Positions 16,719 through 20,658 of a stretch of 38,919 nucleotides of DNA are shown piece after piece; position 1 is the stretch's first letter, and each line of letters opens with the position of its first letter. Source of the DNA: Vulcanimicrobiota bacterium (GTDB lineage Bacteria; Vulcanimicrobiota; Vulcanimicrobiia; Vulcanimicrobiales; Vulcanimicrobiaceae); the NCBI GenBank assembly GCA_019235995.1, contig JAFAJV010000138.1, forward strand, positions 1 through 38,919, in the 5' to 3' direction. The translations under genes and the position numbers were made by a program. The notes under the pieces were generated by a model. It had not been told where the DNA came from, did not search any database, and worked only from the letters and a program-made list of their open reading frames with translations.

Positions 16719-16757
16719 CCAGGGAATCCTCGCGCGCAGCGGAGCATTCGCCCATTG

Positions 16758-18320
16758 ATGAAGCCGTCGGCAGCGCTTGGCGCCCTCGCGATCCTGTTGG
16801 GAGCGGCCCGACCTGCGTCCTCCGTGCTGATCGTTCCATACTTCACGGTCGTTGGCGACGTCCGAGGAGCGACCGGCGTCTCGGCCTACAAGGTCGATCC
16901 GGCCACCGGGGACCTGACGTTAGTCGCAGGTTCGCCCTTTGCAGCAGGCTCGGACCCAACGTCGGCTGCGCTCGCGCCGGACGGCCGCTTCGCATACGTG
17001 ATCAACAAGACCTCCGGAAACGTTTCCGCCTACGGGATTGATGCCACGACCGGGGCATTGCGGCGCGTGGCGGGTTCGCCCTTCGCATTGGACTACAGCT
17101 CTTACGGCCCGAGAGGCGTCGTGGTCGAACCGACCGGTAGATTTGCATACGTCGTTTCCGACGCCGGCGTTTCCGCTTTCTCGATCAGTTCGGCGACCGG
17201 CGCGCTAAAACGGATTCCGGGATCGCCTTTCGCAACAGAACACTCGGGCGCATTTGGAACCGACGGTTTCGGGACCGCTTCGATTGCAGTCGACCCATCC
17301 GGCAAGCACGCGTACGTTCTTAATTACTACCGCAACACGATCTCCCCATACGCTATCAACGGGACCGGCGCGCTCGAGCCCGCCGGCTCCCCTCTCGAGG
17401 CGGGCCAGAACAGCAACGCGGACGGTGCCGGCGCGGCCGTAACGATCAGCCCAAACGGTAAATTCGCCTATGTGACGGCGAGCTGCTGCGCCTACGTCTA
17501 CGCAATCGACGCGACGACCGGCAGGTTGACGCCTTCCGCTCACTTGAGCTTCGGGGAACCCGGTGTCTTCGCGCTCGGAGGGTTCGCAATCGATCCGAAC
17601 GGCCGGTTCGCCTATATCGTAGACGACAGTCGCGTTTACGCGTACAAAATCGACGGCGGCACGGGAAGGTTGAAACTGGAGGGCCGCCCCGCCAATGCCG
17701 GCGCCAGTCCTCACAGCATTGTGCTGGACGGGACCGGCACGTTTGCGTATGTGCTCAGCCTCAACCCCGCGGCGCCAGCCGTCTACGCGTACCGGATCGA
17801 CGCCGCAAGCGGCGAGCTAACGCCGCTGAAGCGTTCGCGCTTTGCGGTCGCCGCAAATACGATCGATCCTGTCGCGCATTGGTTCAATGCCGGAAGGTGC
17901 GCGGCGTTCACGGATGTGCTGTGGAGCGACGCACATCCCCCGCCCGTCGCCAAGCACGATGCGGACCTGACATACAATCACGCTCCGACGCCCGGTTACT
18001 TCTACGACCCGGCGCGACACGTTGCGCTTCACTATCCGCGCGGCGACAGCGGCGGGACGATCACGGTGCGGGTGAGCGGCGAGCCGCCGGCAGGCGTACC
18101 GCGGCGCGACCTGGGCGGGCTGCAGACGACGTCGGGAATCAAGCTCGGCTCGAGCGCCGAGACAGTCATAGCCGCACTCGGTAAGCCTCAGATCATCACG
18201 GGATGCAATCAACAGCGCTACGTCTATCTGATGAGTAGTGTGGGCGGCGAGCCGCTTGGACTAGCGTTCACGATAACTCGCGGCCGCGTCACCGAGATCT
18301 CGGAGGAGCGTGGGGGCTAA
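16758..18320 (+). CDS. Secreted YncE/lactonase-type beta-propeller with a SmpA-like tail
   Basis: This 520-aa protein has a signal peptide (ALGALAILLGAARPASS). About seven repeats of 45-55 residues share the pattern VSAYKVDPATGDLTLVAGSP ... DPTSAALAPDGRFAYVIN, characteristic of 6-phosphogluconolactonase/YncE-like propellers. Residues from about 400 onward form a separate domain ending in GIKLGSSAETVIAALGKPQI and GLAFTITRGRVTEI, similar in pattern to SmpA/OmlA- or BLIP-like modules. Secreted propellers of this type are mostly of unknown function; no lactonase active-site assignment is attempted. ATG 16758 is preferred to the TTG one codon earlier. Its stop lies five bases from the stop of the convergent gene. 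Confidence 0.82.
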   Translation: MKPSAALGALAILLGAARPASSVLIVPYFTVVGDVRGATGVSAYKVDPATGDLTLVAGSPFAAGSDPTSAALAPDGRFAYVINKTSGNVSAYGIDATTGALRRVAGSPFALDYSSYGPRGVVVEPTGRFAYVVSDAGVSAFSISSATGALKRIPGSPFATEHSGAFGTDGFGTASIAVDPSGKHAYVLNYYRNTISPYAINGTGALEPAGSPLEAGQNSNADGAGAAVTISPNGKFAYVTASCCAYVYAIDATTGRLTPSAHLSFGEPGVFALGGFAIDPNGRFAYIVDDSRVYAYKIDGGTGRLKLEGRPANAGASPHSIVLDGTGTFAYVLSLNPAAPAVYAYRIDAASGELTPLKRSRFAVAANTIDPVAHWFNAGRCAAFTDVLWSDAHPPPVAKHDADLTYNHAPTPGYFYDPARHVALHYPRGDSGGTITVRVSGEPPAGVPRRDLGGLQTTSGIKLGSSAETVIAALGKPQIITGCNQQRYVYLMSSVGGEPLGLAFTITRGRVTEISEERGG

Positions 18321-18324
18321 AGAT

Positions 18325-18951
18325 TCAGGTCGCCCCTTTTCGCGGGTCATCGTCGGCGAGAATCTTTAGGGCGGCGTGCTTCAGAGCGCCCACGAATTCG
18401 GCTACGCTGTATCGTCGCTCCGCGACTAGGTCGGATCGAACCGGGGGGACGGGGACCAGGATGTCCGGCGACACCGCCGTCGGATCGTGCAGCCAAACGG
18501 CCCGCACGCCCAAGGCGGGAATCTGCAGCAACGACGCTTCATACGAGGCGTCGGCGATCTTGCGGTCCTGCTCGAGCGCCTCGATGGTACTCGGCACGGC
18601 TGCCGCCGCCGGGTTGAGGTTGAGCGCGGCGAACCTGTGATGCGCGCCCGTCCGATCGATCGACGTGTCGGCCGTGATCGCTTCTCCGTCGGAGACCAGC
18701 ACGTGCCTCCAGAGTGACGGTTTTGCCGCCGCCTTCAGATCGTTACCGTTGGCCGCAGCGAGATCCGACAGCCCCAAGGTGTAAACCTGGTACGAGAGGG
18801 CCGGGGCCATCGAGGCGGCTTTCCCGGCGGTCAATGAGGCTGCGAGCCGCGGCGCGACACGCGCTAGCGCGGCCCGAGTCGCCACCGAGGGAAGCGCCGC
18901 GCGCAGCGCGGCGATCGATCGCGCCGGCGCCGCCGGAATCCTAATAGCCAT
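18325..18951 (-). CDS. Unknown 208-aa partner of the propeller-protease
   Basis: The N-terminal 50 residues are Ala/Arg-rich and probably helical (PARSIAALRAALPSVATRAA), without a convincing signal peptide. The rest is globular, with LSYQVYTLGLSDLAAANGND, KPSLWRHVLVSDGEAITADT, and AVWLHDPTAVSPDILVPVPP. It is 24 bases downstream of the propeller-protease gene in the same direction, so it is very likely co-transcribed. It could be a chaperone, inhibitor or substrate of that protease. No family is recognised, and the role is inferred from position alone. Confidence 0.68.
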   Translation of the reverse strand: MAIRIPAAPARSIAALRAALPSVATRAALARVAPRLAASLTAGKAASMAPALSYQVYTLGLSDLAAANGNDLKAAAKPSLWRHVLVSDGEAITADTSIDRTGAHHRFAALNLNPAAAAVPSTIEALEQDRKIADASYEASLLQIPALGVRAVWLHDPTAVSPDILVPVPPVRSDLVAERRYSVAEFVGALKHAALKILADDDPRKGAT

Positions 18952-18975
18952 GCGTGTTTCCCCCTAGCCCTGTGC

Positions 18976-20511
18976 TCAAGACTTCGTGTAATACGTGTCC
19001 GTCCACGTTCCGCTGCCCTCGTAGGTGCCGCCCGTCAGAGTGCTCACGGCGACGATCGAGTCGCCGTAAATGGGGTCGGTCACCATGACCAGATCGTTGC
19101 CCTGGCAACCGTATACGCCGATGAAGTGCCCTCCGCCGCCGGACCAGGCGATGCGGATGCAGGGCGGCGTCCCTGCGGCGACCTGGCCGAACAAGTTTCC
19201 GTAATCACCTTGACCTGTTTCGAAAGCGAGGTTCCCGAGATACTGAAGGGCTTTGTCAAGATAGCCGGACTGATTGCAGTTGCTCGAGCTGGGATTCGTG
19301 CAGCAGTCCGTTCGCCCAAGCTGCTCGTTCACGACTTCACACTGGGTAACGGTACTGGCCGGAGCATAGTAATGCGCGACGCTCGTTGACACGGCCGCCC
19401 AGCACCACTCCGATTCCTTTTGGGACGCAACCTCGAAAGAAAGGACGCATCCCCCCGGCCACCAGAGCTCGTGTATCTGAAAGTCGCTTCCCAGATAGTT
19501 GATGTGCTGCGTCCCCTGGGCGGCGAACATGTAACCTACCGGAGCCCCTTGAGCGGTCTCCGCCGGTATCTCCGCGGTCAGATCGTTGTGCTGCCACCCG
19601 TTCGTATCCCACCAAAGCTCATGAACGTGGCCATCCGCATCGCAGTAGTTGACGTGTTGAGTATTTTGGGCAACGAAGACGTAGCCGCGCGGATTGCTCG
19701 CCGACGCCGGCGCACCGGTGGCGGCCGTCAAGTCGTTATGATGCCAACCGTTGATATCCCACCATAACTCGTGGACGTGGCCATCCGTTCCCAGGTAGTC
19801 GACGTGCTGGGTTCCCTGCGAATCGAACATGTAGCCGAACGGGTCGCCGGCGGCGTCGGGAGATCCCGCCGCAGCGGTCAGGTCGTTGTGGTGCCATCCG
19901 GCCGCGTCCCAATGGAGCTCGTGTACGTGACCGTCGGTCCCGAGGTAGTTCACGTGCTGCGTTCCTCGGGCGTCGAACATATAGCCGAAGGGATCGCCGG
20001 CGGCGTTGGGAGCGCCCGCCGCAACGGTCAGGTCGTTGTGATGCCAGCCGCGCGCGTCCCACCACAGCTCGTGCACGTGGCCGTCGCCGCCAAGGTAATT
20101 GACGTGCTGCGTCCCTTGGGAGTCAAACACGTAGCCACCGGGATTCCCGACGCCAGTGGGAGCTCCGGCCGTGGCGGTCAAGTCATTGTGATGCCACCCG
20201 TTTACATCCCACCAGAGCTCGTGCACGTGCCCGTCGGGTCCCAAATAGTTCACGTGCCGCGTTCCCTGCGCCGCGAACACATAGCCGCGGGGGTTGCTGG
20301 CGGTGGAGGGTGCGCCGGCGGCGTCAGCCGTCAAATCGGCGAAATGCCACCCGTTCGTATCCCACCAAAGCTCGCACACGTGATTATTCGGGCCACAATA
20401 GTTCACGTGCTGTGTGCCCTGAGCGTCAAACGTGTAGCCCCACGGATCTCCCGCGCCGGCCGGCGCGCTCGACGCGGTGCTGAGGTCACCCTGAGCCCAT
20501 GTGAAAGACAC
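18976..20511 (-). CDS. Lectin-like seven-repeat beta-propeller fused to papain-like (C70-type) cysteine protease
   Basis: The protein is 511 aa from GTG 20511, directly behind a strong AAGGAGGAGG. Residues 24-351 are seven copies of a 50-residue unit (GTQHVNYLGTDGHVHELWWD, GWHHNDLT). The N-terminal TWAQGDLS supplies the strand missing from the last unit, as in velcro-closed propellers. Residues 355-511 form a protease domain: VASQKESEWCWAAVSTSVAH with oxyanion Gln364 and nucleophile Cys370, TQCEVV and CC further on, then GGGGHFIGVYG with His462 and VMVTDP with Asp479. This is the Cys-His-Asp layout of AvrRpt2/staphopain-like C70 peptidases. There is no signal peptide, so it acts inside the cell or leaves by a non-Sec route. 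It is co-transcribed with the 208-aa gene. Confidence 0.85.
   Translation of the reverse strand: MSFTWAQGDLSTASSAPAGAGDPWGYTFDAQGTQHVNYCGPNNHVCELWWDTNGWHFADLTADAAGAPSTASNPRGYVFAAQGTRHVNYLGPDGHVHELWWDVNGWHHNDLTATAGAPTGVGNPGGYVFDSQGTQHVNYLGGDGHVHELWWDARGWHHNDLTVAAGAPNAAGDPFGYMFDARGTQHVNYLGTDGHVHELHWDAAGWHHNDLTAAAGSPDAAGDPFGYMFDSQGTQHVDYLGTDGHVHELWWDINGWHHNDLTAATGAPASASNPRGYVFVAQNTQHVNYCDADGHVHELWWDTNGWQHNDLTAEIPAETAQGAPVGYMFAAQGTQHINYLGSDFQIHELWWPGGCVLSFEVASQKESEWCWAAVSTSVAHYYAPASTVTQCEVVNEQLGRTDCCTNPSSSNCNQSGYLDKALQYLGNLAFETGQGDYGNLFGQVAAGTPPCIRIAWSGGGGHFIGVYGCQGNDLVMVTDPIYGDSIVAVSTLTGGTYEGSGTWTDTYYTKS
19459..20442 (-). repeat. Seven tandem 150-bp coding repeats (propeller blades)
   Basis: The DNA behind residues 24-351 of the propeller-protease consists of imperfect tandem units of 150 bp (the first 153 bp, the last cut to about 81 bp by the protease domain). 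Units 3, 4 and 5 are the most alike, sharing runs such as those coding for GWHHNDLT and DGHVHELWWD. This suggests recent duplication or homogenisation, and the array could vary in copy number between strains. Confidence 0.85.
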
Positions 20512-20658
20512 GGCCTCCTCCTTTGACGCGGCGCCACTTACGTAGCCGTTGGGGTTAAAAGGCTACCACTCTAGGCCGCGGTCGACAAGCCCGCCGGTCG
20601 GCAGCGTGCCAGGTACGAATACCGACGGACGCCAACCCCGTCAGTCCCAGGAGGACAC

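What the first reader, a model, noticed from the sequence alone, without database searches (positions are those of the whole stretch)
18325..20511. Lectin-like propeller fused to a C70-type cysteine protease, with a co-encoded partner and no signal peptide
Seven 50-residue repeats end directly in a complete Cys-His-Asp papain-like domain. The N-terminal strand closes the propeller, so the recognition module is self-contained. There is no Sec or Tat signal, a very strong ribosome binding site, and a 208-aa gene 24 bases downstream. C70 proteases known from established work include secreted effectors (AvrRpt2, staphopains). A glycan-reading intracellular or non-classically exported protease with a cognate chaperone, inhibitor or substrate is a plausible new two-gene system.
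Basis: partly seen in the sequence, partly recalled or inferred. Interest (0 to 1): 0.78.

Follow-up and report, generated by a model that had tools for sequence, protein, structure and literature searches.

The report
Bacterial protease with a conserved partner
A papain-like protease joined to a propeller-shaped head has relatives in very different bacteria, and nearly all the close ones examined come with the same undescribed second protein, which probably keeps the enzyme in check.

Summary
A 511-aa protein (seven propeller repeats, then a Cys370-His462-Asp479 papain-like domain, no signal peptide by eye) is followed after 24 nt by a 208-aa gene. The head is exchangeable: the closest pair (64% and 62% identical, same 24-nt gap) has BTRD1 repeats instead of a propeller. 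The partner has no credible Pfam, NCBIfam or PADLOC match; its confident model (pLDDT 92.9) has no clear PDB match. Its C-terminus ends in a GG/GA/GS-type tail in 53 of 68 relatives, against 24 of 572 other ORFs. A fused relative's protease is closest to staphopains, which are co-encoded with inhibitors. Best explanation: a dedicated inhibitor or C-terminal pro-domain, perhaps acting through the tail. Inhibition, glycan binding and export are inferred. Against a simple cognate inhibitor: in an actinomycete sample 22 of 24 partner homologues have no protease beside them, and 17 of 22 such genomes have none detected.

The parts
18976..20511 (-). protease gene, 511 aa, GTG start, no signal peptide seen
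19450..20511 (-). N-terminal seven-repeat lectin-like propeller head (aa 1-354)
   Evidence: repeats at 50-51 aa; Fungal_lectin; 6htn E=3.2e-6
18976..19449 (-). papain-like protease domain (aa 355-511) with stop; Peptidase_C70 profile
   Evidence: staphopain-like fold from the model of a fused relative
19402..19404 (-). codon of catalytic Cys370
19126..19128 (-). codon of catalytic His462
19075..19077 (-). codon of catalytic Asp479
20514..20522 (-). ribosome binding site AGGAGGAGG of the protease gene
18952..18975 (-). 24-nt spacer; AGGGGG ribosome binding site at 18960-18965
18325..18951 (-). partner gene, 208 aa, undescribed family, helix/strand fold
18328..18354 (-). C-terminal acidic/glycine tail of the partner (DDDPRKGAT)

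Best explanation
A two-protein protease module. The enzyme is a papain-like cysteine protease, probably of staphopain-like fold, with an exchangeable recognition head, here a lectin-like propeller. The downstream protein is its dedicated control partner: an inhibitor in trans when encoded separately, and a C-terminal pro-domain when fused. It most likely binds the protease and keeps it inactive in the cytoplasm until release. The conserved C-terminal acid-plus-GG/GA/GS tail would then lie in the substrate cleft like a cleavage product. Shown: conserved linkage, fusion, triad residues, tail, module swap. Inferred: binding, inhibition, tail insertion, export, target.
For: The partner profile matches in 76 of 80 protease loci: 26 in the same ORF, 50 in the next gene. 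In 149 genomes of the window's phylum all 4 partner places touch a protease. On plasmids two partner queries found 2 and 3 records, each beside a protease. Window against L026: protease 64%, partner 62%, heads without significant match. Catalytic Cys 78 (gaps in 2), His 80, Asp 80 of 80. The protease part of a fused relative's model is closest to staphopain 1cv8, Z 12.7, rmsd 3.2, 152 aligned; staphopains and SpeB are co-transcribed with inhibitors (passages of PMC3462683, and PMC8443034). Tail in 53 of 68 partners against 24 of 572 other ORFs; [quoted passage not shown] The top two weak fold matches of the partner are YpmB, and several others are inhibitor- or cystatin-like (BLIP-like, monellin; the PepSY and cystatin labels are recalled).
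Against: No fold match of the partner reaches Z 5 or E 0.001, and rows of like Z are unrelated proteins such as SAS-6 domains and nucleoporins. The tail is the lowest block of the partner model (71), is low in the fused model (58), and is absent from 15 of 68 partners; a stricter D-to-G pattern fits 37 of 68, and of four plasmid partners outside the set one has it. In an actinomycete sample 22 of 24 partner places have no protease within about 1.5 kb, and 17 of 22 such genomes have none detected. The fused model is weak at the catalytic helix (residues 41-60, means 53 and 59). No complex was modelled and no activity is known.
Confidence: 0.5

Rival explanations
1. Folding chaperone or export adaptor: the partner holds the protease folded or escorts it out of the cell by a route that needs no signal peptide.
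For: Both proteins usually lack visible signal peptides (by eye). Four further cysteines are conserved in 77-79 of 80 proteases, which fits a disulphide-bonded enzyme that works outside the cytosol. In L096 and L104 the protease and a partner-like neighbour both appear to carry signals (by eye).
Against: Permanent fusion in 26 of 80 is less natural for a reusable chaperone. No Pfam family of secretion recurs among 90 nearest-neighbour ORFs.
Confidence: 0.2
2. Toxin and immunity pair for competition between bacteria: the protease is a toxin and the partner its antidote; the Streptomyces-type homologues without a protease are orphan antidotes.
For: Sporadic spread over phyla and plasmids, exchangeable heads, protease-less homologues, a Burkholderia plasmid copy beside DUF2169 and polymorphic-toxin genes; the Cpe1/Cpi1 papain-like toxin/immunity pair is a precedent (passages of PMC12136450).
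Against: Fusion of antidote and toxin in one chain is unusual (inference). No T6SS or CDI family recurs among 90 nearest neighbours. In the one closest pair the partner has not diverged faster than the protease (62% against 64%).
Confidence: 0.2
3. The partner is the substrate: the protease trims or processes its C-terminal tail.
For: The tail resembles a double-glycine-type cleavage site; C39-type peptidases are among the fold neighbours.
Against: In the 53 with the tail the protein already ends at, or one residue after, the motif, so there is almost nothing to remove.
Confidence: 0.07
4. An AvrRpt2-like injected effector with an unrelated neighbour gene.
For: Peptidase_C70 profile match.
Against: Partner linkage in 76 of 80 loci; the fold of a fused relative is closer to staphopain (Z 12.7) than to AvrRpt2 6hqz (Z 9.1).
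Confidence: 0.02

Closest known systems
Staphopain/staphostatin operons (C47, Staphylococcus)
   Same: Closest protease fold (model of a fused relative); protease and a dedicated small protein encoded side by side (passages).
   Different: Here no signal peptide is seen, there is an N-terminal recognition head, the partner is a 208-aa helix/strand protein, and C-terminal fusion is frequent. That staphostatins are lipocalin-like is from a reference title.
SpeB/Spi and Bacteroides C10 proteases with staphostatin-like inhibitors
   Same: Papain-like protease co-transcribed with an inhibitor; in Bacteroides inhibitors may be exported too (passages of PMC3462683).
   Different: Different protease family and domain plan; partner kinship was not tested directly.
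AvrRpt2/EvpQ, peptidase family C70
   Same: Same Pfam profile for the protease (EvpQ's family from PMC7991086 passages).
   Different: AvrRpt2 is T3SS- and EvpQ T6SS-delivered; no such partner or propeller was mentioned in the passages read, and their genomes were not examined.
Cpe1/Cpi1 papain-like toxin and immunity protein
   Same: Papain-like protease with an adjacent neutralising protein (passages of PMC12136450).
   Different: Cpe1 belongs to T6SS/CDI loci. Cpi1 was not compared directly with the partner; the partner profile has no PDB sequence hit below E 0.7.
Polyglycine-hydrolase-like BTRD1 proteins (PF17660)
   Same: The nearest relative pair carries BTRD1 repeats (five stretches) as head.
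   Different: The window has a propeller in that place.

Membership tests
Peptidase_C70 (PF12385) | profile score above Pfam cut-off | tested here: met
   19.9 bits against 19; 20 of 20 proteases, the window included, match the profile at E<=0.01
Peptidase_C70 (PF12385) | Cys-His-Asp triad in order | tested here: met
   residues present and conserved; geometry not modelled for the window
Peptidase_C70 (PF12385) | fold nearest to AvrRpt2 | tested here: inconclusive
   fused relative's model: AvrRpt2 Z 9.1, staphopain 12.7, C39 up to 9.4; the window protease itself was not modelled
Staphopain (C47) | signal peptide and N-terminal propeptide (recalled) | tested here: not met
   the N-terminus is a propeller without visible signal
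Staphostatin | small lipocalin-like inhibitor next to the protease | tested here: inconclusive
   adjacent, but 208 aa with long helices; inhibition untested; the lipocalin description comes from a reference title seen
PepSY/cystatin-like fold (partner) | tandem helix plus four-stranded sheet (recalled) | tested here: inconclusive
   YpmB (9a5z) Z 4.9 rmsd 5.3 115 aligned; DUF2874 proteins 4k61, 4ipb Z 3.9, 3.8 over 54-58 residues; unrelated rows at like Z
Fungal_lectin / AAL-type fucose lectin (head) | profile score above cut-off | tested here: met
   27.2 against 25.3
Fungal_lectin / AAL-type fucose lectin (head) | Arg of the H-I-R strand (fucose ligand, recalled) | tested here: not met
   Asn or Asp in all seven repeats
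Fungal_lectin / AAL-type fucose lectin (head) | sugar binding | not testable with these tools
   needs a glycan array
T6SS/CDI papain-like toxin | delivery genes beside it | tested here: inconclusive
   no Pfam family in more than 2 of 90 nearest-neighbour ORFs of relatives at E<=1e-5, genes further away not examined; one Burkholderia plasmid copy lies by DUF2169/toxin-15 genes
known anti-phage defence protein | PADLOC model match | tested here: not met
   0 matches for 6 proteins at E<=0.1 and for 68 partners at E<=0.01

The most novel reading that the evidence does not exclude
A protease control system without a name, spread over many phyla: the partner's double-glycine-type C-terminus is a built-in ligand of the active site. 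In the boldest form the cysteine protease forms a thioester with that tail and passes the partner on to a target found by the exchangeable head, a protein-tagging system built on a papain-like enzyme. The milder form is product-like inhibition by the tail with a swappable targeting head. The probability given is for the boldest form.
Probability: 0.05. Interest if true: 0.92.

Novelty: new variant of a known kind. Interest (0 to 1): 0.62.

Why it matters
The partner is a protein family without a Pfam, NCBIfam or PADLOC model that follows one protease type through at least nine phyla, as neighbour or as fused domain. That makes it a good candidate for a general way in which bacteria keep a papain-like protease safe at home. 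The natural fusions and the head swap make the mechanism directly testable. In the annotated plasmid records seen the two proteins are only called 'papain-like cysteine protease family protein' and 'hypothetical protein'.

Tried and rejected
Rejected or not supported: an AvrRpt2-like effector with a chance neighbour (76 of 80 loci linked). A canonical fucose lectin head (Arg replaced). A defence-system label (PADLOC empty). A staphostatin label for the partner (size and secondary structure look different; staphostatins did not appear in the fold lists, which proves nothing). A phage origin: one weak viral contig (22% identity) among 58 pattern matches; PHROGs gave only weak matches, best E 0.008.

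Led nowhere: partner against PDB by sequence, against PDB and viral folds by Foldseek (none at E<=0.001); fused-protein profile against PDB sequences (none at E<=0.1); promoter and terminator scan (nothing above shuffles). Exported proteins beside signal-bearing proteases of Streptomyces/Bacillus (A5) show no detectable kinship with the partner (E 0.38). The L096/L104/L005 set (A6) is only a lead (E 3.2e-4, probability 38.6).

Limits and rows dropped. One search kept the best 80 of 258 confirmed relatives, and its query came from the window and four plasmid proteases that all have partners, so 76 of 80 holds for close relatives, not for all C70-like proteases. Of 13 plasmid records with a protease-domain match I looked at four, all with a partner; two of those four partners (Azospirillum, Burkholderia) entered the profile because of their place. 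In the window's class 14 protease-like places were found: 4 have a partner by profile (window, L004, L014, L015), L005 has a possible diverged one, and in the other 9 I saw none when reading the next ORFs, though L007 runs off its contig. A3 holds the window and 67 of the 76 partners. The tree has 83 of 85 rows (L042, L100 left out), and its long-head label rests on ORF length, which may be wrong in a few. Neighbour scan: 90 of 193 ORFs by a crude ORF choice, from 50 of 80 loci. The 572 control ORFs are also crude calls. In one search at most 13 candidates a genome were scored, at most 21, so matches may be missing.

Full report
What is there. On the minus strand, 18976-20511 codes for 511 aa and 18325-18951 for 208 aa, 24 nt apart. 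The first protein has seven repeats with a period of 50-51 residues, and repeat 7 runs straight into a papain-like domain with Cys370, His462 and Asp479. Pfam gives Fungal_lectin (27.2 bits, cut-off 25.3) and Peptidase_C70 (19.9, cut-off 19); the one PDB sequence match at E<=1 is a fucose-binding lectin, 6htn, E 3.2e-6. No signal peptide is visible, and a strong ribosome binding site precedes the GTG. Each protein has one match in its own genome at E<=0.001, and the partner was not found in any of the 98 other genomes of the family by a single-sequence search, so the pair looks like a sporadic possession.

The pair is real. A scan of 84,980 species genomes with a five-sequence protease alignment gave 258 confirmed relatives, of which the best 80 were kept. 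A partner profile built from the window and four plasmid copies matched in 76 of 80 loci at E<=0.01: 26 times inside the protease ORF, at its C-terminus, and 50 times in the next gene. Raw gaps between ORF calls run from -1120 to +46 nt; the large negative ones come from over-long ORF calls, as hand arithmetic on the domain positions shows for L043, L064, L069, L071 and L091. In L056 the contig ends inside the partner. The other four loci: L034 is a fused gene whose partner part is split over two frames; L096 and L104 have a neighbouring protein with an apparent signal peptide and distant similarity (profile comparison of a three-sequence set, E 3.2e-4, probability 38.6); L101 has an exported neighbour without detectable similarity. 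The 76 fall in at least nine named phyla: Nitrospirota, Pseudomonadota, Acidobacteriota, Verrucomicrobiota, Actinomycetota, Bacteroidota, Ignavibacteriota, Gemmatimonadota and Poribacteria.

Tests that start from the partner. In 149 genomes of the window's phylum the partner profile has 4 places in 3 genomes, all beside or fused to a protease. In 36 whole genomes of the relatives it matched in 35, with 41 rows. The 30 places fetched as loci all hold a protease match. One search fetched six stretches, one of them already among the 30: three are pairs and three are Streptomyces copies without a protease. Six rows were not fetched. On plasmids the window partner matched 2 records and a Pseudomonas partner 3, each beside a protease. 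Result against a strict pair: in 246 genomes drawn from the class of a Streptomyces there were 24 partner places in 23 genomes, and 22 of these places have no protease within about 1.5 kb; of 22 genomes with such a copy, 17 have no protease match anywhere. These copies look like one conserved chromosomal gene; they may be orphan antidotes or a descendant with a new task.

The unit and the head. The closest relatives are two Nitrospirota metagenome contigs (L025, L026) with the same 24-nt gap. Against L026 the protease domain is 64% identical and the partner 62%, while the heads give no significant match (best E 1.8): the relative has BTRD1 repeats. Among 20 proteases examined, the window included, all match C70; BTRD1 occurs in 3, Fungal_lectin in 3 and FG-GAP repeats in 2; many relatives have no head. 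On a quick tree of 83 protease domains the fused label needs 2 changes and the long-head label 7, with many weak branches. No Pfam family occurs in more than 2 of 90 nearest-neighbour ORFs, so no third gene was seen to travel with the pair. The head is an exchangeable part; the protease with its partner is the constant one.

The enzyme. Over 80 loci the catalytic Cys is kept in 78 (gaps in 2), His and Asp in 80 each, and four further cysteines in 77-79. Conserved cysteines in proteins without signal peptides, shared with L096 and L104 that seem to have one (by eye), suggest a disulphide-bonded enzyme working outside the cytosol; this is inference. The AlphaFold model of a natural fusion (L030, 26 rows) is fair (pLDDT 80.0, pTM 0.69, weak around the catalytic helix). 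Its protease part matches staphopain 1cv8 best (Z 12.7, rmsd 3.2, 152 aligned), then C39 peptidases (Z up to 9.4) and AvrRpt2 6hqz (Z 9.1, rmsd 3.6, 131 aligned). The window's own protease was not modelled.

The partner. None of 68 members has a credible match in Pfam (2 with DUF5419, best E 0.0012), NCBIfam (1, E 0.0086) or PADLOC (0), and a profile search of PDB sequences found nothing below E 0.7. The window partner models well (68 sequences, pLDDT 92.9, pTM 0.88). No PDB chain reaches E 0.001 or Z 5; the weak matches are led by YpmB (Z 4.9, rmsd 5.3, 115 aligned) and include a BLIP-like protein, DUF2874 proteins and monellin, but also SAS-6 domains and nucleoporins at like Z. That is a hint of a PepSY/cystatin-like arrangement (labels recalled) and no more. 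The C-terminus is distinctive: 53 of 68 end in G followed by G, A, S, T or N and at most one more residue, against 24 of 572 other ORFs in the same loci and 0 of 22 protease-less actinomycete copies. The second residue is G 21, A 20, S 9, N 3. Fused proteins have it in 20 of 20, separate partners in 33 of 48. A stricter pattern (D, no G, then G near the end) fits 37 of 68, and of four plasmid partners outside the set only the Nocardia one has the tail. Sequences are related, so these are not independent counts, and many protease-less copies end in LLGSPA, that is, with two residues added behind a similar motif. GG, GA and GS are the motifs after which RiPP leader-peptide cysteine proteases cleave (passage of PMC10885120).

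How it most likely works. Several bacterial papain-like proteases are co-transcribed with small inhibitors thought to guard the cytoplasm or envelope (SpeB/Spi, staphopain/staphostatin, Bacteroides C10; passages of PMC3462683, and PMC8443034). The conserved neighbour or C-terminal domain here fits that role: an inhibitor in trans or a pro-domain in cis, perhaps with its glycine tail in the cleft as a product-like plug. The head would then bring the released enzyme to its target. Binding, inhibition, the place of the tail, the export route, sugar binding and the target are all unshown. Chaperone and toxin/immunity readings remain open.

What is known. Nine answered searches of the held papers listed no paper whose title or abstract start describes this pair; I read passages only of six papers (PMC7991086, PMC10318531, PMC12136450, PMC3462683, PMC8443034, PMC10885120) and for the rest saw listings. 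The classification of papain-like enzymes describes C70 through plant-pathogen interactions in the passage read. The protease is a known kind; the partner family and the modular pair appear undescribed as far as those searches reach.

Noticed in passing
   Followed up: no
L171, L173, L101: Signal-bearing C70-like proteases of two Streptomyces-type genomes and a Bacillus are followed by an exported protein that seems, by eye, to have a C-terminal membrane anchor; no detectable kinship with the partner.
   Followed up: partly
L135, L136, L145-L166: A partner homologue without protease in many genomes of the sampled actinomycete class; in L135 and L136 it lies beside a glycine-dehydrogenase-like gene and a gene that looks like a glutamate-cysteine ligase (by eye).
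   Followed up: partly
L017 1771-2520: The Nocardia plasmid pair lies near a gene annotated as Pycsar system effector.
   Followed up: no
L020 662-4358: The Burkholderia contaminans plasmid pair lies near DUF2169, polymorphic toxin type 15 and GAD-like genes.
   Followed up: no
window 16755-18320: Gene converging on the pair: a lactonase-like seven-bladed propeller protein (PF10282), unrelated to the pair as far as seen.
   Followed up: no
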